NCBI GenBank assembly: GCA_022648545.1
Contig: JALCMP010000018.1
Location: forward strand, 1 to 42,183
Source: Bacteroidales bacterium
GTDB taxonomy: Bacteria; Bacteroidota; Bacteroidia; Bacteroidales; UBA932
Length of the DNA: 42,183 nucleotides
Direction of reading: 5' to 3'
Shown: positions 13,160 through 39,336 of the stretch, piece after piece
How positions within the stretch are numbered: position 1 is the stretch's first letter
Layout: every line of letters starts with the position of its first letter
Notes under the pieces: generated by a model
Seen by the model: only the letters and a program-made list of their open reading frames with translations
What the model was told of the DNA's origin: nothing
Database searches by the model: none
Position numbers and translations under genes: made by a program

Positions 13160-14242
13160 TTAAGAAAATACAACATTTTCCATTTCATGGAAATGTTCTT
13201 CAATACTTTTGAAAAGTGCCGTTTGTGAATGAGCTCTTACAAGATTATGTTTTTCGTATTTTGTCTTATAGTAGGTATCTCCGTTTATGTAATCCATTAA
13301 GAATCTAAGTGCTTGTTCATAGGTTATGTAAAGGACGGAAAATGGCAGGGATTGTTTTTCGGAAGATGTCAATGTTTTATTCATGTATTTTAAGTATCCT
13401 TTGGTAAAAGCTTTGTACATGTTCATGTCAAGGGCTATTTTTGAAATATCCGGTTCGTCTTCTGCTGCAGTAGATGCATATGTTCTTATGGCATCACCGA
13501 AATCGTTGAAAGCCGGAGCTCTCATTACTGTATCGAGATCAACCATCCCTAATATATTATTGTTCTTGTCGAAGAGTATATTGCTTATTTTTGTATCGTT
13601 GTGAGTAATTCTACGCGGAATTTTTCCATTCTCTACATCTTTGTAGAATTCGGTCATATTGTTGCGGTATTTTTCTATCCAGTCTATTTCTTTTTTACAT
13701 TCCGAAATTCTGCCTGCAGGATCGTCCTTAAGACATTTATCCCATTCCCGCAGTTTAAATATAATATTATGGAATCCTTTTATCGTTTCGTCCAGAGGCA
13801 AATCAAAATCTGATAGCATTTGCTGGAAATCACCTATTCCGGTGCCTCCCTTGTATGCAAGTTTAGCATCGTCAACAATATTATAAGAAACGGCATCGGG
13901 TATTAAAAGGCATACTGTCCAGAAATTGCCGTCGGGGTCCTGAAAATACGATTTGCTTCCTTTTTTTGTTTTAATTATGGTAAGAGTTCCCTTGTAAGGG
14001 TCGTCGTTTCTGGCTTTAAGTTTTTTCTTTATATGTGCAGTAACTTTTTCAATATTGGACATCATGCCCGGAATATCAGGAAATACCGATTTGTTTTTTT
14101 TCTGCAATAAATAATCCGGAGAATTTCCACAGGTGGTGATAGTATATGTGTCGTTTATGAAACCTTCGCCGAGCGTTGTTATTTTATAAATAACTCCTTT
14201 TATTTCGAATTGTCCCAAAATATCGTTGATTTTCATCTTCAT
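13160..14242 (-). CDS. APH-fold phosphotransferase, probable amino-sugar kinase
   Basis: A 360-residue protein of the aminoglycoside-phosphotransferase superfamily. The start was set at the ATG ending at 14242 because the frame extends upstream only to a TTG, which would overlap the previous gene by 20 nt. It has GEGFINDTY near the N-terminus, the catalytic loop HNDTKISNILFD (about residues 214-225) and the metal-binding DLD (about 235-237). This pattern resembles N-acetylhexosamine 1-kinases (NahK-like). It is the last gene of the DeoR-EamA-kinase operon next to a galactosamine-type catabolic operon, so GalNAc or GalN is the likely substrate. Whether it phosphorylates C1 or C6 matters for the pathway (AgaS needs the 6-phosphate) and cannot be read from the sequence. 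Confidence 0.82.
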   Translation of the reverse strand: MKMKINDILGQFEIKGVIYKITTLGEGFINDTYTITTCGNSPDYLLQKKNKSVFPDIPGMMSNIEKVTAHIKKKLKARNDDPYKGTLTIIKTKKGSKSYFQDPDGNFWTVCLLIPDAVSYNIVDDAKLAYKGGTGIGDFQQMLSDFDLPLDETIKGFHNIIFKLREWDKCLKDDPAGRISECKKEIDWIEKYRNNMTEFYKDVENGKIPRRITHNDTKISNILFDKNNNILGMVDLDTVMRAPAFNDFGDAIRTYASTAAEDEPDISKIALDMNMYKAFTKGYLKYMNKTLTSSEKQSLPFSVLYITYEQALRFLMDYINGDTYYKTKYEKHNLVRAHSQTALFKSIEEHFHEMENVVFS

Positions 14243-14252
14243 TGATTTATGG

Positions 14253-15134
14253 TTATTTGTTTTCTTTTTCAAAGCTTAACAGTAATACAGATATTATTGC
14301 GGCTGCGATTCCGAATATTTGTATTGCGGGAGGGACAACCCTGTAAATTATTAATGATATTATTACGGTAAGAACCGGAGCCAGAGCGTTGGTTAGAGGC
14401 GAAACTATCATTGCCTTACCATACCTCATGGCATATACCAGACATAAGGCCCCTATAGCATTGAGAATCTGAACCATAAAGGCCAGGTAAGGGCCCTTGA
14501 ATCCCAAATAGATATTTGCGGAAAAATTTGTCATAAGTAACGCTATGGGAACCAGAATTATTCCGGAAATTACCATATAAACGAATATGCTTTCGGCCTC
14601 GGGACTGTAGTTGTTTGCAACTTTCATTATGAAACCCTGGATTCCCCAGAAGGCGAAAACCAATAGAGAAAGTATCAACCAAAGATATCCCGAAGTTCTT
14701 GCTTCGACCGGACTGGAGTATGAAATGCAGAAAATGGCAATGAAAGCCAGTATTATGCCAAGAATGCTTTTTATGCCGGCCCGTTCATGCAATATGATAG
14801 TTGATAATATAACCGTAAGTATGGGAGAAAGAGAAATAAGCGGAAATATTATATATGCAGGCCCTTCCATAAGGGCTTGAAAAAGTATTAATTGGCCACC
14901 TGCTCCCAGTAGCCCGGTTGCCATGCCCAGAGCAACCGATTTTATTCTTGTGTCAAGTTTGAATTTTATATTTACGAGAGCTGCGATCCCGCAGATAAAC
15001 ATTGTTATTGCCCAAACTACGTATGTAAGGGTGGGGGGAAATCCTGCCTTTTCCGGAATTTCGGAAAAAGCACCCCATACGCCCCATGTCAGTGTTGTTA
15101 CAAGAGCATAAAATAGCCAATTCTTTTTTACCAT
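14253..15134 (-). CDS. EamA/DMT-family inner-membrane transporter
   Basis: The 293-residue protein is almost wholly hydrophobic with about ten membrane segments arranged as two EamA-type halves. It begins WLFYALVTTLTWGVWGAFSEIPEKAGFPPT and the second half begins at about residue 150 (YLWLILSLLVFAFWGIQGFIMK). Drug/metabolite superfamily members of this type move sugars, amino acids or nucleotide sugars. The position between a DeoR repressor and a sugar kinase suggests that it imports the free sugar released in the periplasm, in place of a PTS or MFS permease. The start codon overlaps the DeoR stop by one base (TAATG), so translation is probably coupled. Confidence 0.88.
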   Translation of the reverse strand: MVKKNWLFYALVTTLTWGVWGAFSEIPEKAGFPPTLTYVVWAITMFICGIAALVNIKFKLDTRIKSVALGMATGLLGAGGQLILFQALMEGPAYIIFPLISLSPILTVILSTIILHERAGIKSILGIILAFIAIFCISYSSPVEARTSGYLWLILSLLVFAFWGIQGFIMKVANNYSPEAESIFVYMVISGIILVPIALLMTNFSANIYLGFKGPYLAFMVQILNAIGALCLVYAMRYGKAMIVSPLTNALAPVLTVIISLIIYRVVPPAIQIFGIAAAIISVLLLSFEKENK

Positions 15135-15943
15135 TATATATTAAAGTTGTTTTCTTTCTGGTTAATATCTACGACATAAAGTTTTATTCCCTGTCTTTCT
15201 ATATTATCACGGCTTTCCTGAGATATACCGCTGTCGGTTACTATTGTGTTTATTGCAGAAAGAGGAGCTATAAAGGAAAAACTTTTCTTTTCGAATTTGC
15301 TTGAATCCATTATGGCGATCACCTCATCGGCTGCTTCTATCATAGTTTGATTTAAACGTGCTTCTTCTGCATTAGGCGTAGATAATCCGCGGGTAAAATT
15401 GCAGCTGTCTACTCCAAGAAACAATTTGTCGCAGAAATGAGATTTCATGGTGGATTCCGCCTGTATTCCTATCGTTGAAAGAGACTCGTTCCTTAAATAT
15501 CCGCCCAAGACTATAACATTGAATTTATCATATTCAGCAAGCCGGGACGCAATATTAATTCCGTTTGTTATTATCGTAAGATTGTCGAATTCCGACAAAT
15601 TATTTGCTACCTGCAACGATGTTGTCCCGGAGTCTATTATTATTGTTTCTCCGTTTTTTATGAGAGAGGCCGCTTTTTCCCCTATTAGTTGTTTTTCACG
15701 AATTTTTCTCTGTGTCTTATTGGAAATAGGGATGTCGGTATAATTATCCTGTTTTACAAGGACAGCACCTCCTTTAACCCTTATGAGAAACTTTTGCTCT
15801 TCTAATATAGCCAGGTCTTTCCTTATTGAGACTTCGGAAATTCCATACATCTTTACCATCTCCTTTATGGAGAATCTGTCTTTTTTGTGCAGAAGATCTA
15901 TTATTTGTGATCTTCTTTCCTTAGCCGTCAGTTTATTTTGCAT
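15134..15943 (-). CDS. DeoR/GlpR (AgaR-like) family repressor
   Basis: A 269-residue regulator with an N-terminal winged HTH (residues about 6-60: AKERRSQIIDLLHKK, ISEVSIRKDLAILEE) and a C-terminal DeoR sugar-phosphate sensor domain (DSGTTSLQVANNL, TNGINIASRL, LGGYLRNES, FLGVDSCN). In enterobacteria the GalNAc/GalN regulon is controlled by AgaR of this same family. It is the first gene of the leftward operon and diverges from the amidohydrolase and the large PUL operon. It is the only regulator beside the PUL, so repression relieved by a sugar phosphate is the simplest model for both operons. Confidence 0.92.
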   Translation of the reverse strand: MQNKLTAKERRSQIIDLLHKKDRFSIKEMVKMYGISEVSIRKDLAILEEQKFLIRVKGGAVLVKQDNYTDIPISNKTQRKIREKQLIGEKAASLIKNGETIIIDSGTTSLQVANNLSEFDNLTIITNGINIASRLAEYDKFNVIVLGGYLRNESLSTIGIQAESTMKSHFCDKLFLGVDSCNFTRGLSTPNAEEARLNQTMIEAADEVIAIMDSSKFEKKSFSFIAPLSAINTIVTDSGISQESRDNIERQGIKLYVVDINQKENNFNI

Positions 15944-16179
15944 AGAAATAATTTTTATTTCCGTAAAGATAATATTTTATATTAAAAAATAAAACATATA
16001 TGGTCTTTTTGAAATATTATATTTCATTTTTTAACATAATTGGGCTGTATGTTGCATTTTGTTATTGCAAAATTAATGAATTTATTTATAAAAAATAATT
16101 ATATGCTGTAAAATATTATTAAAATAAATACTTTATTATATCTTTACAAAAATAAAATATCATATTATAATAATTTATC
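15944..16179. promoter_or_regulatory. AT-rich divergent promoter region (deoR / amidohydrolase)
   Basis: No gene is seen. A TATCTTTA box on the minus strand (15964-15971) lies about 20 nt before the deoR ATG, and the same TATCTTTA on the plus strand (16139-16146) lies 33 nt before the amidohydrolase ATG. Both differ by one base from TAnnTTTG and both are followed by C. The central part is extremely AT-rich with no evident palindrome that I could assign to the DeoR protein. Confidence 0.45.
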
Positions 16180-17358
16180 ATGAAGAAAATAATAAAAAAC
16201 GTACTGACATTTTTATCGGTTTTTATCTTTTTTGTTTTTGCAAACGATCTGGTGCTTGCGCAGAATAAGAGCAGGAATTCCGGAAAGAACTCAAAGACAG
16301 CGAAACTTACCATGAATCCAATCAAACCTACAGGATGGAAGGCTCCTGACATCGACAAACTTTATCCTGATACATGTGCGGATCATTCTTCCGAACCATA
16401 TATATCACGCTACCCTGATATTCCGATAATAGATGCACATACACATGCATCCGGGAAATATAGTACTGTAAGAAATTACCTTAAAATAAGTTCAATTATA
16501 AAAAAAGAATATCACTCCGATCTTGCCTGCTGGATTGATCTTGATAAATGGGAAAATCCTATCACTTCTGTTGATTCGGTTGAAACAGCAGCAGATGGCC
16601 GTATTTTATGCTCTTTTGGAGATTATGACGTACATATATATAATAGAAGGGATATAGCTGAAAAGAAAAAAGAAGGTTATATCGGGTGTAAGTTTTGGTT
16701 CGGTCCGTATTACAGAAGAATGACCGACAGCAGTCATCTTATAAAAAACATAGATGATCCGCGATTGTCTTCCATGTTCAGGGCAATGGAAAAAGAACAT
16801 ATGCCAATGACCTCTCTGCATATTGCCGATCCAAACGGTCCGTTTTCCCGGAGAGGTGAATGGTGTGCGGATCCGGTTTTCTTCTGGGGGCAGATAAGGT
16901 CTTTGGAGAACATCGTAAAAAAATATCCACGGCTTACTTTTGTGATTGCGCATGGCGCCTGGCTGAATAATCAGGACGCGCAATTAGATTATATGAGATA
17001 TCTACTTGACACATATCCTAATTTATATATAGATATTGCGGCCACCTTCCAGTATTATTATTTGCTGGATCGTAAGAATCTCCGTGATTTCATGATAGAA
17101 TACTCCGATAGAATAATTTATGGAACAGATGTATCTGACGAAGGAGATAATGATCCTGAAGGCATTGCCGCCAGGTATGCAAGAACCTTCAGAATACTCG
17201 AAACCGCAGATACCGTAATAGGCGGAGGGTTTTTCAATGGGCCAGATATAAAGGGGCTTGCTCTTCCGCGTGCAGTTCTTGAAAAAATATATTACAAGAA
17301 TGTACTTAGGATTTATTCCCTAACATTGAAAAACAGGAGACTTTCTATAAAGAAATAG
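16180..17358 (+). CDS. Secreted amidohydrolase (amidohydrolase_2 / PF04909 type)
   Basis: A 392-residue protein with a cleavable-looking signal peptide (hydrophobic residues about 8-27, VLAQN cleavage region), then a TIM-barrel metal-dependent hydrolase: DAHTHA (Asp85, His87, His89), the SLHIAD strand, FVIAHGAW and YGTDVSDE, which together supply the usual His/Asp metal ligands. Location is periplasmic or outside. It has its own promoter and a strong terminator, so it is a separate transcript from the operon that follows. The family includes hydrolases and decarboxylases. Given the neighbours, removal of the acetyl group from an N-acetylgalactosaminyl residue is an attractive but unproven role. 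Confidence 0.85.
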   Translation: MKKIIKNVLTFLSVFIFFVFANDLVLAQNKSRNSGKNSKTAKLTMNPIKPTGWKAPDIDKLYPDTCADHSSEPYISRYPDIPIIDAHTHASGKYSTVRNYLKISSIIKKEYHSDLACWIDLDKWENPITSVDSVETAADGRILCSFGDYDVHIYNRRDIAEKKKEGYIGCKFWFGPYYRRMTDSSHLIKNIDDPRLSSMFRAMEKEHMPMTSLHIADPNGPFSRRGEWCADPVFFWGQIRSLENIVKKYPRLTFVIAHGAWLNNQDAQLDYMRYLLDTYPNLYIDIAATFQYYYLLDRKNLRDFMIEYSDRIIYGTDVSDEGDNDPEGIAARYARTFRILETADTVIGGGFFNGPDIKGLALPRAVLEKIYYKNVLRIYSLTLKNRRLSIKK

Positions 17359-17374
17359 TTTCTATTTTAAACAT

Positions 17375-17420
17375 ATGGTTAATAAATGGAATGCGATATT
17401 TCATTTATTAACCATTTTTT
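17375..17420 (+). terminator. Rho-independent terminator after the amidohydrolase gene
   Basis: A 14-bp perfect AT-rich stem ATGGTTAATAAATG (17375-17388) / CATTTATTAACCAT (17402-17415) with a 13-nt loop is followed by Ts to 17420. It separates the amidohydrolase transcript from the agaS operon. Confidence 0.85.
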
Positions 17421-17493
17421 GTTTGTTATAGTGTAAAATGCATTTTAAAATGAAATATTATTGAAATAATGTTATGAAATTAAATATTTTAAT

Positions 17494-17501
17494 ATACATT
17501 T
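17494..17501 (+). promoter_or_regulatory. Promoter (-7 box) of the agaS-PUL operon
   Basis: TACATTTG is an exact TAnnTTTG match between the terminator at 17420 and the first gene. It would give a leader of about 15 nt to the ATG at 17521 or about 36 nt to the ATG at 17542. No clear -33 TTG is present at 19-20 nt. Confidence 0.6.
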
Positions 17502-17520
17502 GTGTCGAAACAAAATAAAT

Positions 17521-18699
17521 ATGGGATTAATCGTATCAGATATGATAAATAAAATAACATTTAACCAAACCTACAAGGAAATAATGCAGCAGCCCTATAC
17601 ATTATATGCAACATTTGAAACCATAAGGAGTAACAAGGAGCAAATCGTTAAATTCTTAAGAGATCGCGACATTGATAGGAATTCTAAAATTATCTTTTCA
17701 GGAGCAGGTTCTTCTGCCTATATCGCCGATTCTATAGTATGTCTTTATAAAAAGGATGGTTTTTTGGATGTCCGTTCGGTCCCTACTACGGATATAATAA
17801 CAAATCCTGCATTTTATCTGGATCGGGAAAAAAGGGTAGTCGATATTTCATTCGGACGTTCCGGAGATAGCCCAGAGAGCGTTGCTGCATATGATATAAT
17901 AAATAAGTTTTGCAACAATCCCTCACATATAATAATTACTTGTAATTCCAAAGGCGCTCTTGCCGAAAAGGCGCGTAATAATAAAAATACACTGGCCCTG
18001 ATAATGCCTGATCTTACAAACGACAGAAGTTTGGTTATGACGAGTAGTTTTACCTCAATGATGTTGGCTGGCCTGCTTCTAAAGAATATAAAAGTAATAG
18101 AAGAAGAAAAAAACAGGATTGAAGAAGCCGTTGCCTTTGGAAAATCTCTTTTGGAAAATCCATCTTTTGCCGCTCATGTAAGCAAAATGACGGAATTACC
18201 GATAGAAAGGGCAGTCTTTCTCGGAAGCGGACCGCTGAAGGGAATAGCCAGGGAATGCAATCTTAAACTCCAGGAAATGACAGATGGAAGGATAATATGT
18301 GAATATGATTCTTTTATGGGACTTAGACATGGCCCCAAGGCCGTTATAAAGCACAATACCATGGTAGTTTATTTGTTGTCAGATGAAAATTATACAAACA
18401 TGTATGAATTTGATCTAATCAAACAGGTGAATACAGAAAATCATCCGGCTCTTCAGGTCGTCGTATCAAGATCTAAAATGCCTGTCGATTTTTCAGATAT
18501 CGTGGATATGGAATTGAATGATCCTACTTCTTTTTCTCTGGCCGACAACGAATATAAGTATATACCGTTCGTCTTTGTCGGTCAGTTGCTAGGATATTCA
18601 TTTTGTACGGAAAAAGGTCTGAATCCCGATAATCCGTCCGTGTCGGGAACAATTTCAAGAGTTGTGAACGGAGTAAAAATATATGAATATAAAATATAA
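17521..18699 (+). CDS. agaS: AgaS-type SIS-domain sugar isomerase/deaminase
   Basis: The protein (392 residues from this ATG; a second ATG at 17542 gives 385 and may be the true start, given the promoter position) closely follows E. coli AgaS along its length: SGAGSSAYI, VPTTDIITNP, ISFGRSGDSPESVAA, ITCNSKGALAE, the second SIS half with FLGSGPLKGIAREC and GLRHGPKAV, and the final NPDNPSVSGTISRVV. AgaS is the cytoplasmic galactosamine-6-phosphate deaminase/isomerase producing tagatose-6-phosphate. It heads a run of ten co-directional genes. This assignment is the strongest pointer to a galactosamine substrate for the locus. Confidence 0.9.
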   Translation: MGLIVSDMINKITFNQTYKEIMQQPYTLYATFETIRSNKEQIVKFLRDRDIDRNSKIIFSGAGSSAYIADSIVCLYKKDGFLDVRSVPTTDIITNPAFYLDREKRVVDISFGRSGDSPESVAAYDIINKFCNNPSHIIITCNSKGALAEKARNNKNTLALIMPDLTNDRSLVMTSSFTSMMLAGLLLKNIKVIEEEKNRIEEAVAFGKSLLENPSFAAHVSKMTELPIERAVFLGSGPLKGIARECNLKLQEMTDGRIICEYDSFMGLRHGPKAVIKHNTMVVYLLSDENYTNMYEFDLIKQVNTENHPALQVVVSRSKMPVDFSDIVDMELNDPTSFSLADNEYKYIPFVFVGQLLGYSFCTEKGLNPDNPSVSGTISRVVNGVKIYEYKI

Positions 18700-18711
18700 A
18701 AATACTTGATT

Positions 18712-19962
18712 ATGGAACATTATAATGATCTTCCCAAAGTGGAAAAGATTATGAATCGCATTGAGATTCTTAAGAATAAAGGCATGAAACCTATGACCCT
18801 TCTTGGTGTTTGCCCTAACTCTCCCTCTGTAATAAAAGCCGGATTCCGTGCCGCTAAAAGAAATAATGCACCTATTCTTTTTGTGGCAACTCTTAATCAG
18901 GTGGACTGCGATGGTGGTTATACCGGGATGACCCAGGAAGATTTTATTAAAGTGCTAAAGATGGAAGCCCGTAAAAACGATTATGACGGACCTTATGTAG
19001 CAGCCGTAGATCATGGCGGACCATGGCTCAAGGATAAGCAGACAATTGAAAAATGGAGCTATGAGCAAGCTATGAAAGGAGTCAAAAAATCTTTCGAAGC
19101 TGCTGTTCTTGCCGGATATGATATGATACATGTGGATCCCACCGTTGACAGAACTCTGTCAGAGGGGGAAAAGATAAAAATAGAGACAGTTGCAGACAGG
19201 ACCGTGGAACTTATTTCTTATGTTGAGAAATTCAGAAGGGAAAGAGATCTTCCTTCCATATCATATGAAGTCGGGACAGAAGAAGTACATGGAGGTCTGG
19301 CAGATGAAAAGACTTTTGATAAATTTCTCGTATTATTGAAATCCGGTTTGAGAAAGGTCGGTTACGAAGATGTCTGGCCATGCTATATTGTTGGAAAGGT
19401 TGGAACTGACTTGGATACTGCATATTTCGACAAAGAAGTAGCCAGCGAACTCACTGCAAGAGTGAAGCCTTACGGAAGTTATATAAAAGGGCACTATACT
19501 GATGGTGTGGAAAATCCTCAGGATTACCCCCTGTGCGGTATGGGCGCCGCAAATGTAGGACCTGAATTTACTATTTCCGAATATGATGCGATTGCCGAAC
19601 TGGAAATACTGGAAAAACGATTCTATGAAAATAACAGGGTCGCCCTGCCATCCAAAATAGCAGAGGTAATAGAGAAACTGGTCGTTTCTTCCGGCCGATG
19701 GAAAAAATGGCTTCATCAAAACGAATCCGGCAAAGACTTTTATTCCCTGGATCCTAATCGCAGAAACTGGTTGATTAAAACTGGAGCCAGATACATATGG
19801 CAGCAACCTGAGACGATAGCGGCAAGAGGCCTGCTGTATGATAATCTTAAGGACAACGGCATAGATGCGGAAACAATCGTTCTTTCAAGAATCGAACACG
19901 ATATTGATAAATATTATAATGCATTTAACATAGTTAATCTCAATGATTATCTAAAAGATTAA
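18712..19962 (+). CDS. GatZ/KbaZ-like tagatose-bisphosphate aldolase subunit
   Basis: A 416-residue protein of the tagatose-6-P kinase/aldolase-subunit family (PF08013). Recognisable segments are LLGVCPNSPSVIKAG, NQVDCDGGYTGMTQEDF, AVDHGGPWLKD and the later SYEVGTEEVHGG. The start is the ATG at 18712; the frame reaches a TTG two codons earlier. In E. coli GatZ/KbaZ is needed for full activity of the class II aldolase GatY/KbaY. No GatY/KbaY homologue is in this window. In Shewanella the related AgaZ has been assigned as an aldolase in the GalNAc pathway, so this divergent member may act alone (inference). It sits between agaS and a PfkB kinase, exactly where tagatose-1,6-bisphosphate cleavage is expected. 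Confidence 0.85.
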   Translation: MEHYNDLPKVEKIMNRIEILKNKGMKPMTLLGVCPNSPSVIKAGFRAAKRNNAPILFVATLNQVDCDGGYTGMTQEDFIKVLKMEARKNDYDGPYVAAVDHGGPWLKDKQTIEKWSYEQAMKGVKKSFEAAVLAGYDMIHVDPTVDRTLSEGEKIKIETVADRTVELISYVEKFRRERDLPSISYEVGTEEVHGGLADEKTFDKFLVLLKSGLRKVGYEDVWPCYIVGKVGTDLDTAYFDKEVASELTARVKPYGSYIKGHYTDGVENPQDYPLCGMGAANVGPEFTISEYDAIAELEILEKRFYENNRVALPSKIAEVIEKLVVSSGRWKKWLHQNESGKDFYSLDPNRRNWLIKTGARYIWQQPETIAARGLLYDNLKDNGIDAETIVLSRIEHDIDKYYNAFNIVNLNDYLKD

Positions 19963-19973
19963 ATCTATTCAGA

Positions 19974-20927
19974 ATGAAGAAAACGGATATAATAGCTCTG
20001 GGAGAACTTAACGTAGATCTCATATTAAATGATATCAACGGTCTCCCAACGGTTGGCAAGGAAATAATTGCCGAAAAAATGGTAATGACCCTCGGTAGTT
20101 CCACGGCTATTTTCGCCGCCAATGCTGCTACTCTTGGGGCCGAAGTTGCCTTTATGGGAATGGTGGGACATGACGATTTTGGTGCGTTCGTAAAAAATAA
20201 TCTGCGACAAAAAGGAGTAGAAACATCATTTATATCTGAGTCTGATAATTATTCCACGGGACTGACCGTCGTTCTTAGTTATAAAGAAGACAGGGCTAAC
20301 GTAACGTATCCGGGAGCTATGAATTTTATGGGAATAAATGAAATAAACGGAGATGCAATTAAAAATGCCAAGCATGTTCATATATCTTCATTATTCATGC
20401 AGGAAGCATTGCATCGTGATATTGTAGGAATACTAAAGCTTATAAAGAAAAGCGGTGCAACTATATCGCTTGATACACAATGGGATCCTTCCGAAAAGTG
20501 GGATCTGGATTACAGGCAGATACTTCCAATGGTAGACGTCTTTATGCCTAATGAAACTGAATTAAAAGCGCTGACCCGTACTGATAATATAAAAGATGCA
20601 ATTGAAAGAATTCGTGATTATGCAAATGTTGCGGTAATAAAAAAAGGTTCGAACGGATCTCTTATGCTTAAGCAAAATGGGGAATTAAAGAATCTTCCTG
20701 CATGTATAAATATAAATGTCGTAGATACCGTTGGTGCCGGAGATAGTTTTAATGCGGGTTTTATTCATGCATTTGTAAAAGGGGAATCTCTTGAGGAATG
20801 TCAGGAAGCCGGAAATATTACCGGAGCCGTAAATACAACGGCGGCAGGAGGTACAGGGGCATTTATTTCAAAGGACAAAGTGTCCGAAATAGCTTGTCGT
20901 CAATTCGGAAAAATTTTATCGTTATGA
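19974..20927 (+). CDS. PfkB-family sugar kinase, probable tagatose-6-phosphate kinase
   Basis: A 317-residue ribokinase/PfkB protein. The N-terminus has ALGELNVDLI, the middle SLDTQWDPS and PNETELKAL, and the C-terminal signature is DTVGAGDSFNAGF with the catalytic Asp, followed by GAVNTTAAGGTGAF. Fold and motifs are intact. The step between AgaS (tagatose-6-P) and the aldolase-like protein calls for a tagatose-6-phosphate kinase, so that is the likely role, though PfkB substrate specificity cannot be read from motifs. Its stop codon overlaps the next gene's ATG (ATGA, 20924-20927). Confidence 0.9.
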   Translation: MKKTDIIALGELNVDLILNDINGLPTVGKEIIAEKMVMTLGSSTAIFAANAATLGAEVAFMGMVGHDDFGAFVKNNLRQKGVETSFISESDNYSTGLTVVLSYKEDRANVTYPGAMNFMGINEINGDAIKNAKHVHISSLFMQEALHRDIVGILKLIKKSGATISLDTQWDPSEKWDLDYRQILPMVDVFMPNETELKALTRTDNIKDAIERIRDYANVAVIKKGSNGSLMLKQNGELKNLPACININVVDTVGAGDSFNAGFIHAFVKGESLEECQEAGNITGAVNTTAAGGTGAFISKDKVSEIACRQFGKILSL

Positions 20928-22990: not shown

Positions 22991-23006
22991 TCCTGAGGTC
23001 GTAACT

Positions 23007-25064: not shown

Positions 25065-25087
25065 ACTAATATTAATTTTTAACAATT

Positions 25088-28087
25088 ATGGCTAAATACA
25101 AATCAGCCTCCAGGATGATTTCCCTCATCGGTATTTTTGTGCTTCTTGCGACATCGGTTTTCGCGCAGGAGATAACCGTTTCCGGGAAAATCATATCCTT
25201 AACTGACAAACAGCCTTTGCCTGGCGTGTCTATATTTGTCAAAGGAACGACCATCGGTACAACTTCCGATATAGACGGGATGTATACTTTGAAAGTGAAA
25301 AAGGGTACGGATCAGCTCCGGTTTTCATGTATGGGATATAAAACCCTTGAAAAAAAATTTTATGGGAACATACTTAATGTTGAAATGGAAGAAGATGTTA
25401 TCGGACTTGATGCTATAATAGCAGTTGGATATACATCCAAGTCCAAGGCCGAGATATCCAGTGCTATTACGACTGTCTCTTCTGACAAACTTACGGATAT
25501 TTCTTCTTCAGATGTTGGCTCCATGCTGCAGGGTAAGGTCTCTGGAGTCTCGGTTTCGAGTTCCAGCGGACAGCCCGGAGAGTCGGCGCAGATTCGTATA
25601 CGCGGAACGGGCTCTATTACTGCACAATCTGATCCTTTATATGTTGTGGACGGTATTGCAGGAGGAGAATTTAATCCAAATGATGTAGAAAGCATTACCG
25701 TATTAAAAGATGCCGGTGCTACTGCCATGTATGGATCAGAAGCTGCAAACGGAGTTATCGTAGTAACTACGAAACATGCTGCAAAAAACGAGGGGATTAT
25801 GGTAAATTTAAAGGCTTATACAGGTATAAAGGTAGCCAATCAGGGTAATTTCGAAATGATGAACGGGCGTGAACTTTATAAAACACAAAGAGAAATGATG
25901 AGTGCTTCTCTATTTTCTCAGTTGCGTCCGATAGAGCTTGCTTCTAGAAATTTCGACTGGGAGAATAAATCCTTTAAGGCCGCACCTATGAGCGATGTTT
26001 TTATGTCGGTCAGTTCCGGAACAAATAAACTCAGATATTATGCGAGTATTGACATGTATAACGAAGATGGTACTTTTATAAAGACCGATTTCCGAAAATT
26101 GAGTTCGCGTATAAATGTTGATGCTGATTTGTCGGATAAGATCAGTCTTAGAACAAGTATATCCCTTACATCTTCAAGGGGAAGTTATCCCGCAAGTTAT
26201 ACATGGCTGGAAGGAGCATATAAGAATATGCCATGGGATAATCCTTATTCTACTACCGGAAGTGGTTATGTTTATATAAACAGTGATACCAGAAGTGATA
26301 ACGGTGAGAAATGGTACGGACAGGACAAAATAAATTTCCTTCAAAGTTCAGAATATAATTTCAACAGATCCAAATATTATGGGATGGTGGGGGATGCTGT
26401 CCTTAAGGTTAACATATTGCCGGGGCTCATATTTACGAGTTCAAACCGTGTTTCAAGTTCCCTGTCTAAAACAGCAAGTTATGTTGATACGAGAACCAAC
26501 GATCCTTCTTGGAACAATGGATATGTTGATAATGTCGTTTATCAGTCAAACAGTGTAGGAACTTCCGATCTGTTGAAGGCAAATTATCATTTTGGAAAAC
26601 ATGCTCTTAGTGGTTTCGTAGGATTTGAATACGGAGAATCTCATTCCGACAATGTTGATGCAAGTGGAACCAATCCTCCGCAGGGACTGAGCGTTCTTAA
26701 CGTTGTTGTCCCCCTTGATGTAAACGGTTATAAAATACCCGGGAAGACTGCATCCTTCCTGTCGCAATTTCAATATAGTTTTGAGAATAAATTATTTGCA
26801 ACTATTTCATATAGAAGGGACGGCTCTTCCATATTCGGACAGAATAATCGCTGGGGAAACTTCCCTGCAGCAGCTGTTTCGTGGCTTGCAAGTCAGGAAA
26901 AATTTTTGAAAAGTTCAAATATTCTAACATATTTAAAATTGCGTGCCAGCTACGGAGTTACCGGCAATTCAAATATAGGGGCATTCAAATATCTGGCTCT
27001 TTATAGCTTTAGTTCTCAATATAACAGTCATGTAGGAGCGATACCGGTGACTCTTTCCAATCCTGATCTGGGATGGGAAACCGCATATATGACCAATTTT
27101 GGAATCGATATGGAATTTTATCACAGAATTAATCTTACAGTCGATTTTTACAATAACGAGAATAAGGATCTTCTTCTGGATGTTCCTGTTTCGTTCTCCA
27201 GCGGCTTCGATTACCAGACCAGAAATGCCGGACATGTTCGCAACAGGGGATTGGAAATAGACGTTTCTACTGTAAATTTCAATAAAAAATTCAAGTGGAA
27301 TACGAGTTTTAACATATCGTTCAATAAAAACAGGGTAATGTCATTGCCTGCCGGGCAGGATTATATACTTCAGACCGTAGACAATGTAAATCAGAAGATA
27401 AGTGTTGGAAAAGACATGTTTACATGGTATATGCCAAAATGGGCCGGAGTAGATTCGGAGAACGGAGATCCTTTATGGGAATGCCAGACTTTGGATGAAA
27501 AGGGAAGAGTTGTTTCCACGGAGCTTACGAATGATTATACTAAGGCTAATCTTCAGGAAGTGGGATCAGCTTCTCCGAAATTTACAGGAGGATTTGATAA
27601 CAATTTTAATTATGGTGGATTCGGATTATCCATAACCACTAATTTCGTTTACGGGAATAAAATATATAATTACGACAGGCAGGAACTCGATTGCGACGGA
27701 GCTTATCCCGGATATAATATGATGAAATTGAAGACGGGCTGGTCGCGTTGGGAGAAAGTCGGTGATCATGCAACTCATCCTAAACTTGTTATGAACGGAA
27801 ACAAGGAATCCAATAAAACTTCTTCCAGATATCTTGAAAACGGAAGTTTCCTGCGGATCAGAAATATCAAGCTGTCTTACGATTTACCGCAATCATGGAT
27901 AAAATCACTCAGACTCTCGTCTGCAAAAGTTTATGTATCGGGAGATAATCTGTTTACATTCACCAAGTTCTCCGGGACGGATCCGGAAGTGAATATGAGG
28001 ACAGAAGAGTGGCAACTTGCAGGGTTTTATCATTCTTCTTACCCTATAAGCAGACAGTATATGTTCGGTATAGAATTGAAGTTTTAA
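25088..28087 (+). CDS. SusC-like TonB-dependent outer-membrane transporter
   Basis: A 999-residue protein with signal peptide (ISLIGIFVLLATSVFAQ), an N-terminal carboxypeptidase-regulatory-like domain (about 29-105, SGKIISLTDKQPLPGVSIFVKG), a plug domain (about 115-225, IRGTGSITAQSDPLYVVDGI, SITVLKDAGATAMYGSEAANGV) and a long beta-barrel ending in the aromatic YPISRQYMFGIELKF. It imports oligosaccharides across the outer membrane together with the SusD-like lid encoded next. It follows the second GH36 gene by 23 nt within the same operon. No plug or barrel region appears broken. Confidence 0.97.
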   Translation: MAKYKSASRMISLIGIFVLLATSVFAQEITVSGKIISLTDKQPLPGVSIFVKGTTIGTTSDIDGMYTLKVKKGTDQLRFSCMGYKTLEKKFYGNILNVEMEEDVIGLDAIIAVGYTSKSKAEISSAITTVSSDKLTDISSSDVGSMLQGKVSGVSVSSSSGQPGESAQIRIRGTGSITAQSDPLYVVDGIAGGEFNPNDVESITVLKDAGATAMYGSEAANGVIVVTTKHAAKNEGIMVNLKAYTGIKVANQGNFEMMNGRELYKTQREMMSASLFSQLRPIELASRNFDWENKSFKAAPMSDVFMSVSSGTNKLRYYASIDMYNEDGTFIKTDFRKLSSRINVDADLSDKISLRTSISLTSSRGSYPASYTWLEGAYKNMPWDNPYSTTGSGYVYINSDTRSDNGEKWYGQDKINFLQSSEYNFNRSKYYGMVGDAVLKVNILPGLIFTSSNRVSSSLSKTASYVDTRTNDPSWNNGYVDNVVYQSNSVGTSDLLKANYHFGKHALSGFVGFEYGESHSDNVDASGTNPPQGLSVLNVVVPLDVNGYKIPGKTASFLSQFQYSFENKLFATISYRRDGSSIFGQNNRWGNFPAAAVSWLASQEKFLKSSNILTYLKLRASYGVTGNSNIGAFKYLALYSFSSQYNSHVGAIPVTLSNPDLGWETAYMTNFGIDMEFYHRINLTVDFYNNENKDLLLDVPVSFSSGFDYQTRNAGHVRNRGLEIDVSTVNFNKKFKWNTSFNISFNKNRVMSLPAGQDYILQTVDNVNQKISVGKDMFTWYMPKWAGVDSENGDPLWECQTLDEKGRVVSTELTNDYTKANLQEVGSASPKFTGGFDNNFNYGGFGLSITTNFVYGNKIYNYDRQELDCDGAYPGYNMMKLKTGWSRWEKVGDHATHPKLVMNGNKESNKTSSRYLENGSFLRIRNIKLSYDLPQSWIKSLRLSSAKVYVSGDNLFTFTKFSGTDPEVNMRTEEWQLAGFYHSSYPISRQYMFGIELKF

Positions 28088-28103
28088 TTAAAAACTTAAT
28101 ATT

Positions 28104-29789: not shown

Positions 29790-29826
29790 TAGAATTAAAT
29801 GATCTTGATAGCTAAAAACATTTTTA

Positions 29827-30738
29827 ATGAAAATAATTAATAAAATATCGATTATATCGGGCGTAATCCTGTCGGGAATATTGATTTTGATTTGTATTGC
29901 GTCCTGCGGCAAAAACGAAACCTTTGATCCGGTAGCATATTTTACTTATGAAACTGACGGTATGAACGTCGTTTTTACGGACGGTTCCCTGGATGCCAGT
30001 ACATATAGCTGGGATTTTGGAGACGGTACTAATTCTTCTGAGCAAAATCCATCCCATACATATTCAACTGGCGGCAAGTATACGGTAACACTTAATGTTG
30101 CAGGCAAGGGGGGACATGATAGTGCAAGCAAGAACGTTTCACTTACGATTCCCGGGAAAATAACCATAGACGGAGATTTTTCCGACTGGGATCAGATAAC
30201 GGCACTGGTTGCATGTGATAAAGATTCCGGTACTCCTTCGTTGGAAATATTTAAAATATATGCCGATGACAATAATATTTACTTTTATTTGAAAATGGCT
30301 TCCGGATATACTGACGGAGTCCTGGATATGATGCTTGATACGGACTTTGATTCTACTACGGGAAATCACAGCTGGATGTGGGATGCCGGATGTGGTGTGG
30401 ATTATCTCATAGAAGGAGAGATCTTTTCCGATAAGGATGCCGCAATGTATAAATATACAGGACAGGATGGTTCAGGCGATTGGTCATGGGAAGAAGTTGT
30501 AGCAGCCGGATCCAATCTTATTAATGCAGCCGATCCTGTGACTTCCGACGGAACTACCAAATTTGAATTTTCAATTCCTAAAGAACTGATTATCAATTTG
30601 TCTTCTACAGGTATAGGAGTGGGGCTTAATCTTATGAATTCATCTTGGTCTTCGGTTGGAATTCTTCCTTCTCCGGAAGGTGGTTATACTACGGCGGATT
30701 ATAATTTTGCAAATGAAAGTCTGACGGTTAATTTATAA
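29827..30738 (+). CDS. PKD-domain lipoprotein with C-terminal DOMON/CBM9-like domain
   Basis: A 303-residue lipoprotein (lipobox IASC, Cys27). Residues about 36-105 form a PKD domain (STYSWDFGDGT, HTYSTGGKYTVTLNV). The rest begins ITIDGDFSDWDQI and continues as a beta-rich module with several Trp (HSWMWDAG, GDWSWEE), resembling the carbohydrate-binding modules that often start with an IDG-DW motif. It sits where SusE/SusF-type surface glycan-binding proteins are found, directly after SusD, so a surface binding role for the target glycan is the natural inference. The next gene's ATG overlaps its stop by one base. Confidence 0.8.
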   Translation: MKIINKISIISGVILSGILILICIASCGKNETFDPVAYFTYETDGMNVVFTDGSLDASTYSWDFGDGTNSSEQNPSHTYSTGGKYTVTLNVAGKGGHDSASKNVSLTIPGKITIDGDFSDWDQITALVACDKDSGTPSLEIFKIYADDNNIYFYLKMASGYTDGVLDMMLDTDFDSTTGNHSWMWDAGCGVDYLIEGEIFSDKDAAMYKYTGQDGSGDWSWEEVVAAGSNLINAADPVTSDGTTKFEFSIPKELIINLSSTGIGVGLNLMNSSWSSVGILPSPEGGYTTADYNFANESLTVNL

Positions 30739-32159
30739 TGCGTAAGAATATACATAGGTCCGGATTGTTGTCGTTGAGACATTCCGGACCATTTTTATTT
30801 TTTCTGTCGTGTTACCTGTTATTGTCTGCATGCGGTTCTAAAAGTGATTCGCAAAATAAATTAGCAGGCAACATAATCATTAAATACGAAGAGGATACTT
30901 TCGTATTTGCAAATCCCGACAGAGGCTTCTATATCCCCAAGGAGTGGAATTCTGAAAACGATTCTCCCTTGAATGATAAAAAACTGGAAACTATACGAGA
31001 TTTTTACAAAACCTCGCTTATAATGGCGGAGTATAAATTTCACGGTTATCAAAACCAGCGGTTATCTGACAAATGGCTCTCCCTTATAAAGGAGAATTTT
31101 GATACTATGAGAAGAAACGGCTTCAAATGTATATTGAGGTTCGCCTATACCGACGATACACTGGAAAAGCCATGGGATGCTGACGAAAGCACGGTTCTTG
31201 AACATATCTCGCAGTTGAAGCCTTTGCTTCAGACGAATGCCGATGTTATTTCTACAATGCAGGCGGGCTTTATAGGAGTATGGGGAGAATGGTATTATTC
31301 TTCTTATTTTGGATTTCCTGATGCGGATTACACTAAACGTAAAAAAGTTATAGAAGCTCTGCTTGATGCTCTTCCCGCATGCCGGATGATAGCCGTCAGG
31401 ACGCCTGCATTGAAAATGGGTGTACTGGATCTTTCGGAATATGACACGCTTACAGCGTCAGAAGCGTATGGAAATAAATCTATTGCTCGCATAGCACATC
31501 ACAACGATGCTTTTCTTTCCACATACAACGATATGGGAACTTATGATAATTTGAAGGCAGACAAGAATTATCTGGAGCATGATTCAAAATATCTTGCTGT
31601 TGGAGGCGAAACCGATATGCTTTCTTCATATTCGAAAAAAGACAATGCTCTTAAAGAAATGGCCCGCTTCCATTGGTCCTATCTTAACATGGTTTATCAT
31701 CCCGATGTTATCAAATCATGGAAAACGCAGGGATGTTTTAATGAAATAGCGCGGCGTCTTGGATATCGTTTTAGATTGATAGAGGGAGAGTATACTGAAA
31801 ATCCTAAATCAGGTTCGGACTTTGATATTTGTCTGGAAATAGCAAACGATGGTTTTGCCGCTCCATTCAATGCTCATGACGTAAAGTTTGTACTCAAAAA
31901 TAAATCTACCGGAGGCGAAATAGTAGTAAATACTAACGAAGATCCGCGTTTCTGGTTCGGCGGCGGTATTATTGAAGTATCTAATGTCATAAATATAGAT
32001 AGCCGTTTCGTTCCCGGGGATTATGATTTATACATTGCCATTACCGATCCGTGCGATTCCCTGAGAGAAAATCCTTTTTATAATATAAGATTTGCGAATA
32101 AAGGAATATGGAATACGGAAACAGGATATAATTTTCTTTTTACCATATCAATAAAGTAA
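30738..32159 (+). CDS. DUF4874/DUF4832 lipoprotein, possible glycoside hydrolase
   Basis: A 473-residue lipoprotein (lipobox LLSAC, Cys32). Residues about 45-210 match the DUF4874 pattern (ANPDRGFY near the start, then a barrel-like GFKCILRFAY, GFIGVWGEWYYSS with Glu184) and the remainder DUF4832 (YLAVGGETDM, FHWSYLNMVYHPDV, then a C-terminal beta-sandwich from about residue 350). The conserved acidic residues on barrel-like strands (RFAYTDD, WGEW, GGETDM) look like a retaining or inverting glycosidase site, but I know of no activity assigned to these DUFs and state this as inference. The gene is translationally coupled to the PKD gene and belongs to the PUL operon. Confidence 0.78.
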   Translation: MRKNIHRSGLLSLRHSGPFLFFLSCYLLLSACGSKSDSQNKLAGNIIIKYEEDTFVFANPDRGFYIPKEWNSENDSPLNDKKLETIRDFYKTSLIMAEYKFHGYQNQRLSDKWLSLIKENFDTMRRNGFKCILRFAYTDDTLEKPWDADESTVLEHISQLKPLLQTNADVISTMQAGFIGVWGEWYYSSYFGFPDADYTKRKKVIEALLDALPACRMIAVRTPALKMGVLDLSEYDTLTASEAYGNKSIARIAHHNDAFLSTYNDMGTYDNLKADKNYLEHDSKYLAVGGETDMLSSYSKKDNALKEMARFHWSYLNMVYHPDVIKSWKTQGCFNEIARRLGYRFRLIEGEYTENPKSGSDFDICLEIANDGFAAPFNAHDVKFVLKNKSTGGEIVVNTNEDPRFWFGGGIIEVSNVINIDSRFVPGDYDLYIAITDPCDSLRENPFYNIRFANKGIWNTETGYNFLFTISIK

Positions 32160-32162
32160 ATC

Positions 32163-33371
32163 ATGAAGAGGTTTGCATGTTTTCTGTTTTTTATATGTTT
32201 TTCGGTGCACCTTTTGGCTGAAGAAAGATTCCTAAAAAGACCCTACAGTATGTCTCCAACAGATTCATCCATTAGAATAGTTTGGGAAACCCCGGAAAGC
32301 AGTCCTGCAATTAGTATTGTGAAATACGGAACAACGCCAGATTTGAAATCAACAGTCAGGGGGCCTGCCGGGCGTCGTATAAAGGGTGAGGGGTATATCC
32401 ATGAAGTTGTAATAACTGGACTTGATCCTTTTACAAGGTATTACTATAAAGTAGGAGACGGTGATATTTTTAGTGATGTGTGTGAAACAAAAACAGCTCC
32501 GTCCAAAGGGATGTCGTTCAGAATTCTTTCCCTTGGGGATATTCACAATGACAGCGGAGGAGTATGGCGTAAGTTGTGTGGAAAATTGATCGGTGAGAGG
32601 ATGGATCTGACGGTATTTCTTGGTGATTTTGTAAACAACGGTTCAAGAAGGGACGAGTGGAACGACGGATTTTTCGTTCCTGGTTATCCTTTGCTTGCAA
32701 AATGTCCGATCATAAGTACCATAGGGAATCACGAAACTGCTTTCGGTTCCAGCACTTATTATGACTATTTTTCCCTTCCGGAGCATCCTGCAAACGGTGA
32801 CGATCCCGAATCATATTACGGAATGAACTATGGAGATGTGAAAATAATAGCCGTAAATCTCAATGACGACGATTACAGTCCTGCTTTTTCTTCCGGTTCC
32901 CATCAACTGGCATGGCTTGATAATGAAATAAAAAACGATGATTCAAAATGGATTTTTATTTTCTCACATGTGAATGTCATTTCTACTGGGTTCCACGGGC
33001 AATGGTCAGATAATCAAAAAAAATATATCAAGCCTCTTCTTGAAAAATATTCCCAGAAAGGGAAAAATATCATTTTTTTTGCCGGGGATGAACATAACTT
33101 TGAACATCTTTATGATAAAGGTGTTAATTATTTTCGTCCCGGTTCAGCAAATAATATAATAAGAGGCCGCTTTAATATGTCGGATTCTCCTTTTTCTGTA
33201 TTTTTTAAAGCTACGGCCGGATATTCCACAATCGATTTACTTAAAAATGGAACAAAAGTAAGAGTTGCAGCACATGATATTACCGGAAAGATATTTTACG
33301 ATGTTGAATTTACTGCCGGTCCTAAAGCATTCATAAAAGAACAAAATCGGACCGGGGGGATAATCTATTAA
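32163..33371 (+). CDS. Exported purple-acid-phosphatase-like metallophosphoesterase
   Basis: A 402-residue protein with signal peptide (about 1-19), an N-terminal fibronectin-III-like domain typical of purple acid phosphatases (about 27-112, SIRIVWETPE, GLDPFTRYYYKVGDG) and a calcineurin-like catalytic domain: GDIH (Asp126, His128), FLGDFVN (Asp155), GNHE (Asn189, His190), FSHVN and GDEHNFEH. The dinuclear metal site appears complete. It is the last gene of the PUL operon, 3 nt after the DUF4832 gene, and its final 4 nt overlap the convergent DUF3467 gene. A role in removing phosphate from decorated glycans is plausible given location, but not shown. Confidence 0.9.
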   Translation: MKRFACFLFFICFSVHLLAEERFLKRPYSMSPTDSSIRIVWETPESSPAISIVKYGTTPDLKSTVRGPAGRRIKGEGYIHEVVITGLDPFTRYYYKVGDGDIFSDVCETKTAPSKGMSFRILSLGDIHNDSGGVWRKLCGKLIGERMDLTVFLGDFVNNGSRRDEWNDGFFVPGYPLLAKCPIISTIGNHETAFGSSTYYDYFSLPEHPANGDDPESYYGMNYGDVKIIAVNLNDDDYSPAFSSGSHQLAWLDNEIKNDDSKWIFIFSHVNVISTGFHGQWSDNQKKYIKPLLEKYSQKGKNIIFFAGDEHNFEHLYDKGVNYFRPGSANNIIRGRFNMSDSPFSVFFKATAGYSTIDLLKNGTKVRVAAHDITGKIFYDVEFTAGPKAFIKEQNRTGGIIY

Positions 33372-39180: not shown

Positions 39181-39202
39181 TGTTAACGGAGCAAAGTGAA
39201 GT

Positions 39203-39236
39203 AAAAAAGGCTGCCTGGCTAAAATGCAGGCAGCCT
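39203..39236 (-). terminator. Rho-independent terminator of tRNA-Ser
   Basis: On the minus strand a 10-bp stem AGGCTGCCTG / CAGGCAGCCT (plus-strand arms 39208-39217 and 39227-39236, 9-nt loop) is followed by TTTTTT (39203-39208). It begins 14 nt after the 3' end of the tRNA. Confidence 0.9.
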
Positions 39237-39249
39237 CTGAAAATAGTTG

Positions 39250-39336
39250 CGGAAAGAGAGGGATTCGAACCCCCGGTACGGAAATCCGTACAACGGTTTT
39301 CGAGACCGTCCCGTTCGACCGCTCCGGCATCTTTCC
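39250..39336 (-). tRNA. tRNA-Ser (anticodon CGA)
   Basis: On the minus strand the gene starts GGAAAGATGCCGGAGCGGTC and ends with the T-arm GGTTCGAATCCC and acceptor strand TCTTTCC plus discriminator G. The 7-bp acceptor GGAAAGA/TCTTTCC pairs perfectly, the anticodon stem ACGGT/ACCGT flanks CTCGAAA with anticodon CGA, and there is a long variable arm (GTACGGA...TCCGTAC), all diagnostic of a class II serine tRNA reading UCG. CCA is not encoded. Length is 87 nt. Confidence 0.96.

What the first reader, a model, noticed from the sequence alone, without database searches (positions are those of the whole stretch)
13160..33371. Galactosamine-type PUL joining SusCD uptake, tandem GH36 enzymes and an Aga-like catabolic route
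Fourteen genes combine an AgaS-type isomerase, PfkB kinase and GatZ/KbaZ-like protein (cytoplasmic galactosamine route), two GH36-like lipoproteins, SusC/SusD, two further lipoproteins, a phosphoesterase, an APH-fold kinase, an EamA transporter, a secreted amidohydrolase and a DeoR repressor. Known: AgaS acts on galactosamine-6-phosphate and AgaR is a DeoR-family protein. Inference: the target carries alpha-linked GalNAc or GalN, e.g. mucin O-glycans, blood group A or a galactosamine-containing polysaccharide. The combination in one locus is unusual enough to merit a close look.
Basis: partly seen in the sequence, partly recalled or inferred. Interest (0 to 1): 0.7.

Follow-up and report, generated by a model that had tools for sequence, protein, structure and literature searches.

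The report
Gene set for eating galactosamine polymers
An uncultured bacterium, by its genes one of the Bacteroidota, carries a compact gene set that appears to cut up, import and burn a sugar polymer made of galactosamine, probably a microbial biofilm or fungal polymer rather than host mucus; the activities are predicted and untested.

Summary
In detail: 14 genes, as described. The galactosamine reading is supported and sharpened; mucin or blood group A is not favoured. Both GH36 lipoproteins match FpGalNase, an alpha-galactosaminidase, far better than any other solved relative (E 1e-54, 2e-52). The lipoprotein at 30738-32159 is DUF4874-DUF4832; a DUF4832 TIM-barrel protein, SIR_1591, breaks up aggregates held by Pel, an alpha-1,4-GalNAc/GalN polymer (PMC12345266). 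The APH-fold kinase resembles N-acetylhexosamine 1-kinases. Much of the set recurs in other Bacteroidota PULs. No NagA-type deacetylase was found in 9 of 14 related genomes, this one included, which fits free GalN as substrate. Relatives follow AgaS with PF08013, with a LacC-like kinase, or with neither, often plus a class II aldolase; this genome has PF08013 and only one housekeeping-type aldolase. Best model: DUF4832 cutting, GH36 release of GalN, then PfkB (GalN kinase), AgaS (to tagatose-6-P) and PF08013 (4-epimerase, to fructose-6-P). Nothing was assayed. My paper searches showed no described PUL for Pel or galactosaminogalactan.

The parts
13160..14272 (-). NahK-like N-acetylhexosamine 1-kinase (APH fold): would handle released GalNAc (inferred)
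   Evidence: PF01636; PDB N-acetylhexosamine 1-kinases 4ocj/4wh1, E about 3e-72, residues 17-367. B. theta BT4240, of the same domain family, is a GalNAc kinase (PMC11992087, passages); not compared with it directly
14253..15134 (-). EamA/DMT permease, candidate inner-membrane amino-sugar carrier (inferred)
   Evidence: PF00892; EamA homologue (>=80 bits) in 25 of 80 named DUF4832 loci
15134..15943 (-). DeoR-family repressor, AgaR-like
   Evidence: NF040755 AgaR 252.7 bits, cut-off 260; 36% identity to E. coli AgaR
16180..17358 (+). Secreted amidohydrolase (PF04909) with conserved metal-ligand-like residues; role unknown, deacetylase conceivable
   Evidence: H87, H89, H214, H258, D317 invariant in an 8-row alignment in which the other rows are only 25-32% identical; signal peptide read by eye
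17500..18699 (+). AgaS-like galactosamine-6-phosphate deaminase/isomerase
   Evidence: TIGR02815 328 bits, cut-off 529; PDB 3odp E 4e-71; 35% identity to E. coli AgaS
18706..19962 (+). PF08013 GatZ/KbaZ-like protein, proposed stand-alone tagatose-6-phosphate 4-epimerase
   Evidence: PF08013 126.6 bits, cut-off 26.7; GatZ C20, D87, H88, E171 and, one column off, H257 conserved; E44 and K279 not
19974..20927 (+). Ribokinase/IolC-type PfkB kinase, proposed galactosamine 6-kinase
   Evidence: IolC model 146 bits, ribokinase 141, LacC 21; in L057 and L104 a homologue coexists with a separate LacC/1-PFK-like kinase
20924..22990 (+). GH36 lipoprotein a, FpGalNase-like alpha-galactosaminidase
   Evidence: PDB 8x1b/9awt E 1e-54
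23007..25064 (+). GH36 lipoprotein b, FpGalNase-like (59% identical to a)
   Evidence: PDB 8x1b/9awt E 2e-52, 2e-51; alignment A2
25088..28087 (+). SusC-like TonB-dependent transporter
   Evidence: PF07715, PF00593, PF13715
28104..29789 (+). SusD-like lipoprotein
   Evidence: PF07980, PF14322
29827..30738 (+). PKD lipoprotein, candidate surface glycan-binding protein
   Evidence: PF18911; its C-terminal part has BLAST matches (E 2e-9 to 2e-4) in the C-terminal extensions of DUF4832 proteins in 5 of 8 relatives tested
30738..32159 (+). DUF4874-DUF4832 lipoprotein, proposed endo-acting alpha-GalN(Ac) hydrolase; candidate catalytic E184 and E291
   Evidence: PF16173, PF16116; E184 and E291 invariant in 45 sequences; model with pLDDT 92
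32163..33371 (+). Purple-acid-phosphatase-N plus calcineurin-like phosphoesterase, accessory
   Evidence: PF16656, PF00149; weak PDB purple acid phosphatase match E 2e-5

Best explanation
This is a polysaccharide utilisation locus for a polymer rich in alpha-linked galactosamine, most likely a partly de-N-acetylated alpha-1,4-GalNAc/GalN polymer such as Pel or galactosaminogalactan. Proposed order, every step inferred from homology and gene context: the DUF4874-DUF4832 lipoprotein cuts the chain; PKD protein, SusD and SusC capture and import the pieces; the two FpGalNase-like GH36 enzymes release GalN; EamA carries it inward. PfkB phosphorylates GalN to GalN-6-P, AgaS converts that to tagatose-6-P and ammonia, and the PF08013 protein epimerises tagatose-6-P to fructose-6-P for glycolysis. 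GalNAc residues would go through the NahK-like 1-kinase. An AgaR-like DeoR protein represses the set.
For: FpGalNase is the best solved relative of both GH36, about 130 bits ahead of the next. By my hand reading, 8 of the 9 residues named for FpGalNase (W317, D346, D347, W387, K461, D463, C513, D532) fall on invariant columns of 11 proteins (the window's two and nine relatives). SIR_1591, a TIM-barrel/DUF4832 protein, breaks up Pel-dependent aggregates (PMC12345266, section 21 and passages). A search of 395 class genomes with AgaS alone (E <= 1e-40) found 3 besides this one: L109 has the PUL with GH36 and DUF4832, L104 has SusCD and GH109, L107 runs off its contig. GH109 also sits beside DUF4832 in L051, L060 and L062 (Pfam for L060; BLAST for the rest). 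No NagA match (E <= 1e-8) in 9 of 14 genomes, 8 of the 11 in which AgaS itself was seen in the fetched stretch; PMC5583593 (passages) takes agaS without agaA as GalN use. Only a housekeeping-length class II aldolase was found in this genome and in those of L038, L040, L076, L090 and L098, all holding AgaS and PF08013. L057 and L104 carry a LacC/1-PFK-like kinase where PF08013 sits in others, with PfkB kept (L057: 1-PFK 223 bits, cut-off 216; L104's is 40% identical to it). In E. coli, loss and expression of gatZ and expression of kbaZ support F6P-to-T6P conversion, and T6P-to-F6P is cited (PMC11907403, passages).
Against: No activity is tested for any protein of the locus. FpGalNase Y464 is not conserved. 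AgaS and PF08013 fall below NCBIfam cut-offs (328 of 529; 97.8 of 568.8). GatZ E44 and K279 are replaced. In the fetched stretches L046, L074 and L109 have AgaS, PfkB and aldolase without PF08013 or LacC-like kinase, and L066, L069 and L085 have AgaS with neither PF08013 nor aldolase, so the swap is not strict; PF08013 was not sought in the rest of those genomes. L104 and its extension L105 show no DUF4832. 43 of the 80 named DUF4832 loci show none of AgaS, PF08013, PfkB, aldolase or GH36, some for lack of flank, so DUF4832 is not tied to GalN alone. GH31 homologues of L005's alpha-galactosidase-like protein lie in 13 of 108 stretches. The solved folds nearest DUF4832 are loose (TM by query 0.16-0.36 in the 50 rows shown). 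SIR_1591's strain makes GalNAc-rich Pel that an alpha-1,4-galactosaminidase did not disperse, and deleting SIR_1591 had no phenotype. The NagA model is also silent in the control Bacteroides ihuae.
Confidence: 0.62

Rival explanations
1. Mucin or blood-group-A PUL: GH36 acts on alpha-GalNAc/GalN caps of host glycans after deacetylation, as in Flavonifractor plautii.
For: FpGalNase is studied for removal of blood group A (PMC11762096, part 1 of 2 read); an APH-type GalNAc kinase and a GH109 work in the B. theta mucin locus BT4240-50 (PMC11992087, passages); several relatives are rumen or hindgut MAGs by their record titles.
Against: No sialidase, fucosidase, beta-galactosidase, hexosaminidase or M60 gene among the 14; large parts of the set also occur in Proteiniphilum, Alkaliflexus and Cytophagales/Cyclobacteriaceae records (L024, L026, L051, L060, L062, L074). 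An FpGalNAc-deacetylase homologue was not recognised in the locus, but that family was not searched for in the genome.
Confidence: 0.15
2. Plain alpha-galactoside or galactosaminogalactan PUL in which GH36 removes alpha-galactose and the aga genes serve a minor branch.
For: GH31 proteins homologous to L005's, which matches solved GH31 alpha-galactosidases (8j50, E 4e-164), lie in 13 of 108 stretches examined; galactosaminogalactan holds galactose as well as GalNAc/GalN (recalled).
Against: The window's locus has no GH31 gene; its GH36 proteins match FpGalNase about 130 bits above the next solved alpha-galactosidase.
Confidence: 0.13
3. Tagatose-bisphosphate route: PfkB is a tagatose-6-P kinase, PF08013 only an aldolase helper, and the housekeeping aldolase cleaves tagatose-1,6-bisphosphate.
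For: Ten of the PF08013 loci listed in the full report keep an aldolase next to PfkB (class II by Pfam in L001 and L006, the rest by BLAST to L001's); E. coli GatY/KbaY have low activity without GatZ/KbaZ (PMC10101011, passages).
Against: PfkB scores 21 bits on LacC and 141-146 on ribokinase/IolC models, and a homologue coexists with a LacC-like kinase in L057 and L104; on this reading no GalN kinase would be left in the locus.
Confidence: 0.25

Closest known systems
Escherichia coli aga/gam cluster (agaR, kbaZ, agaS, kbaY)
   Same: AgaR-like DeoR repressor, AgaS, PF08013 protein
   Different: Here no PTS, agaA or kbaY; PfkB kinase, GH36 and SusCD instead; PF08013 protein only 24-26% identical to GatZ/KbaZ
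B. thetaiotaomicron BT4240-50 mucin O-glycan PUL (PMC11992087, passages)
   Same: SusCD and an APH-type N-acetylhexosamine kinase
   Different: That PUL has M60 protease, GH2, GH109 and an MFS carrier; here GH36, DUF4832, AgaS, PF08013, PfkB
Flavonifractor plautii FpGalNase (GH36) with FpGalNAcDeAc (PMC11762096)
   Same: 8 of 9 named GH36 active-site residues
   Different: No deacetylase partner recognised; the GH36 are lipoproteins in a SusCD locus
Streptococcus intermedius SIR_1591 of the pel operon (PMC12345266)
   Same: TIM barrel plus DUF4832
   Different: There part of a polymer-making operon, here of an uptake locus; the two sequences were not compared directly

Membership tests
Bacteroidota SusCD-type PUL | Adjacent SusC/SusD pair with secreted glycosidases | tested here: met
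FpGalNase-type GH36 alpha-galactosaminidase | Closest solved relative and conserved active-site residues | tested here: met
   8 of 9 residues by hand reading, Y464 not
FpGalNase-type GH36 alpha-galactosaminidase | Hydrolysis of alpha-GalN | not testable with these tools
   needs an enzyme assay
AgaS | Score above the TIGR02815 cut-off | tested here: not met
   328.2 against 529.2; the best of its NCBIfam matches, so AgaS-like only
GatZ/KbaZ-like family (PF08013) | Pfam gathering score | tested here: met
   126.6 against 26.7
GatZ/KbaZ-like family (PF08013) | Active-site residues C20, E44, D87, H88, E171, H257, K279 of GatZ | tested here: inconclusive
   C, D, H, E kept, H kept one column off; E44 and K279 not kept
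Tagatose-bisphosphate aldolase subunit (GatZ/KbaZ equivalog) | TIGR02810 cut-off and a KbaY/GatY partner in the locus | tested here: not met
   97.8 against 568.8; no PF01116 gene in the locus, one copy in the genome at C33
LacC tagatose-6-phosphate kinase | LacC or 1-PFK model match | tested here: not met
   21 bits LacC; 66.7 bits 1-PFK against 216.4
Pel hydrolase of the SIR_1591 kind | TIM barrel plus DUF4832 | tested here: met
Pel hydrolase of the SIR_1591 kind | Cleavage of Pel | not testable with these tools
   needs an assay
N-acetylhexosamine 1-kinase (NahK) | Full-length homology to solved NahK | tested here: met
   E about 3e-72, residues 17-367
Mucin PUL | Enzymes for capping sugars (sialidase, fucosidase, beta-galactosidase, hexosaminidase) | tested here: not met
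   none among the 14 genes

The most novel reading that the evidence does not exclude
An undescribed, recurring class of Bacteroidota PULs eats cationic alpha-1,4-GalN/GalNAc biofilm polymers (Pel, galactosaminogalactan), using DUF4874-DUF4832 as an endo-glycosidase and, in this genome, a three-enzyme route GalN -> GalN-6-P -> tagatose-6-P -> fructose-6-P that by-passes deacetylase, tagatose-6-P kinase and tagatose-bisphosphate aldolase.
Probability: 0.4. Interest if true: 0.82.

Novelty: new variant of a known kind. Interest (0 to 1): 0.64.

Why it matters
If true, it names a bacterial consumer of polymers that hold biofilms together, gives DUF4874-DUF4832 a testable digestive role, adds FpGalNase-like enzymes of use for blood-group and biofilm work, and shows how Bacteroidota could use free galactosamine without NagA, PTS or tagatose-bisphosphate aldolase.

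Tried and rejected
Folding the DUF4832 protein alone gave a useless model (pLDDT 37) and spent one of two jobs; the 45-row job worked. Foldseek against the PDB gave only loose TIM-barrel matches. phmmer of the DUF4832 protein against PDB chains gave nothing below E 0.3. Some DUF4832 loci without aga genes were inspected for a pel-like context: the neighbours scanned in L028, L032 and L042 (Flavobacterium, Capnocytophaga) were not glycan genes, and L049 (Bacteroides congonensis) is a GH31 locus with a hybrid two-component regulator. An 11-mer shared by two intergenic stretches, picked after looking at the sequence (2 of 100 shuffles had as many), is too weak to call an operator. Promoter-like sites were no more frequent than in shuffles by much (78 against 68, sd 8.7). 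The mucin reading was ranked lower. Paper searches, seen as listings only: PUL with galactosaminogalactan and PUL with Pel gave 1 paper each, neither about such a PUL by title and start of abstract; AgaS/SusC/GH36/galactosamine (48 papers, 12 listed), galactosamine kinase/PfkB (40, 12 listed), tagatose 6-phosphate/epimerase/galactosamine (9 listed) and galactosaminidase/SusD (54, 12 listed) showed none in the listed titles.
Full report
What is there. The region holds 14 genes in the order described. Divergent units face each other: NahK-like kinase, EamA and the AgaR-like DeoR protein on the minus strand, and on the plus strand a secreted amidohydrolase, a terminator-like hairpin (17375-17415), then AgaS to phosphoesterase with gaps of at most 37 bases. 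The window lies in an 85% complete, 2.37 Mb assembly of 56 contigs.

The enzymes outside the cytoplasm. Both GH36 proteins begin with a lipobox (read by eye). Their three best PDB sequences are 8x1b, 9awt and 9ayu. 9awt and 9ayu are named A type blood alpha-D-galactosamine galactosaminidase; 8x1b aligns almost letter for letter with them, and I take it to be the same enzyme. The next solved alpha-galactosidase scores about 130 bits lower. PMC11762096 (part 1 of 2 read) names nine active-site residues; eight fall on invariant columns of an 11-protein alignment, by my hand reading. Y464 is not kept. The protein at 30738-32159 is DUF4874-DUF4832. PMC12345266 (section 21 and passages) reports that SIR_1591, a TIM-barrel/DUF4832 protein of the S. 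intermedius pel operon, breaks up Pel-dependent aggregates, and states that cell-free Pel is mainly a GalNAc-GalN repeat. PMC7112168 (passages) places DUF4832 genes next to streptococcal and clostridial pel genes. My 45-row model has pLDDT 92; E184 lies after the fourth barrel strand and E291 at the end of the seventh, by my count of strands, and both are invariant in the 45 sequences. That is where many TIM-barrel glycosidases keep their acid pair (recalled). The C-terminal part of the PKD lipoprotein matches the C-terminal extensions of DUF4832 proteins in 5 of 8 relatives tested, which ties the two proteins together.

The same set elsewhere. In 295 genomes of the order, DUF4832 has a match at E 0.001 in 24 (21 over its cut-off), GH36a at E 1e-20 in 12, PF08013 in 14. 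GH36 and PF08013 share 9 genomes (0.57 expected), GH36 and DUF4832 9 (0.98 expected), PF08013 and DUF4832 8 (1.14 expected). GH36 and PF08013 lie on one contig in 7; in G000, G109, G217 and G167 DUF4832 lies there too. G014 and G228 count in the overlaps but have the genes on different contigs and a PF08013 of another type. Counting matches of at least 80 bits, 18 hold AgaS, 16 PF08013, 17 PfkB, 9 aldolase, 19 GH36 and 43 SusC; 43 show none of AgaS, PF08013, PfkB, aldolase or GH36. These 80 were ranked by likeness to the window's own protein, so they are not a neutral sample. A more neutral test used AgaS alone in 395 class genomes: 4 had it at E 1e-40, this one included. Of the other three, L109 carries AgaS, PfkB, aldolase, GH36, DeoR, two DUF4832 genes, PKD, SusCD and EamA; L104 carries AgaS, LacC-like kinase, PfkB, aldolase, amidohydrolase, GH109, DeoR and SusCD but no DUF4832 in L104-L105; L107 ends after an amidohydrolase.

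The inner route. In the fetched stretches relatives follow AgaS with: PF08013, PfkB and aldolase (L001-L004, L006-L008, L011, L012, L041); PF08013 and PfkB without aldolase in view (window, L013, L038, L040, L090, L098, the last four with PfkB divergent); a LacC-like kinase, PfkB and aldolase without PF08013 (L057, L104); PfkB and aldolase only (L046, L074, L109); or neither PF08013 nor aldolase (L066, L069, L085). The aldolase was checked by Pfam in L001 and L006 and elsewhere called by BLAST. Genome-wide, L038, L040, L076, L090 and L098 gave only one class II aldolase each, of housekeeping length (334-355 aa frames), as did the window's genome (323 aa); most are MAGs, so absence is not proof. 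The genome of L013 was not searched. PfkB scores as a sugar kinase, not a sugar-phosphate kinase. Together this suggests that PfkB makes GalN-6-P, and that PF08013 or kinase-plus-aldolase are alternative ways to spend tagatose-6-P. PMC11907403 (passages) shows in E. coli that gatZ is needed for tagatose made from F6P and that kbaZ can replace it, and cites T6P-to-F6P epimerisation by such proteins. The window protein keeps C36, D102, H103, E192 and, one column off, H263, but not GatZ E44 and K279.

GalN rather than GalNAc. TIGR00221 (NagA) had no match at E 1e-8 in 9 of 14 genomes: this one, G217 and G616 (97 and 99% complete), and the genomes of L026, L038, L040, L041, L076 and L098. It matched in 5, one a fragment with stops, so the model does see NagA in some carriers. 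AgaS itself was seen in 11 of the 14 (not in L024, L026, L030, where the stretch ends first); 8 of those 11 lack NagA. The control Bacteroides ihuae was silent, so the model may miss some forms. PMC5583593 (passages) takes agaS without agaA as the mark of GalN use. The NahK-like kinase would cover GalNAc (compare PMC11992087, passages). A GalNAc-GalN polymer would need just these two routes; that fit is inference.

What is shown and what is not. Shown: gene content, homology, conserved residues, recurrence and co-occurrence. Inferred: every activity, the direction of flow, the polymer, and the roles of EamA, the amidohydrolase and the phosphoesterase. Against: sub-cut-off model scores, lost GatZ residues, DUF4832 loci without any aga gene, an aga/GH109 locus without DUF4832, loci with neither PF08013 nor aldolase in view, GH31 alpha-galactosidase-like neighbours, and SIR_1591's GalNAc-rich substrate.

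Noticed in passing
window 17375-17415: A 19-pair, A+T-rich terminator-like hairpin followed by T's separates the amidohydrolase from the AgaS unit.
   Followed up: partly
window 16010-16020 and 17451-17461: TGAAATATTAT occurs twice in the window, before the amidohydrolase and before AgaS (0.21 expected, 2 of 100 shuffles as many); possible DeoR operator.
   Followed up: partly
window 39249-39336: tRNA-Ser(CGA) overlaps the start of an ORF 38221-39330(-) that has no Pfam match.
   Followed up: partly
window 1-2064: Hybrid two-component regulator cut by the window edge.
   Followed up: no
window 36453-38212: Tandem ParA/MinD-type ATPases with ferredoxin domains after a DUF134 gene.
   Followed up: no
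L049 1-11431; also L027, L036, L063: Other loci pair DUF4832 with a GH31 alpha-galactosidase-like protein; in L049 (Bacteroides congonensis) with SusC/SusD-like genes and a hybrid regulator.
   Followed up: partly
L022, L046: Records titled Leptolinea sp. and Rickettsiales bacterium carry typical Bacteroidota PULs; possibly mislabelled or misbinned contigs.
   Followed up: no
L110 10611-11768: An AgaS-like gene beside another type of GatZ and an aldolase is split into two ORFs.
   Followed up: no
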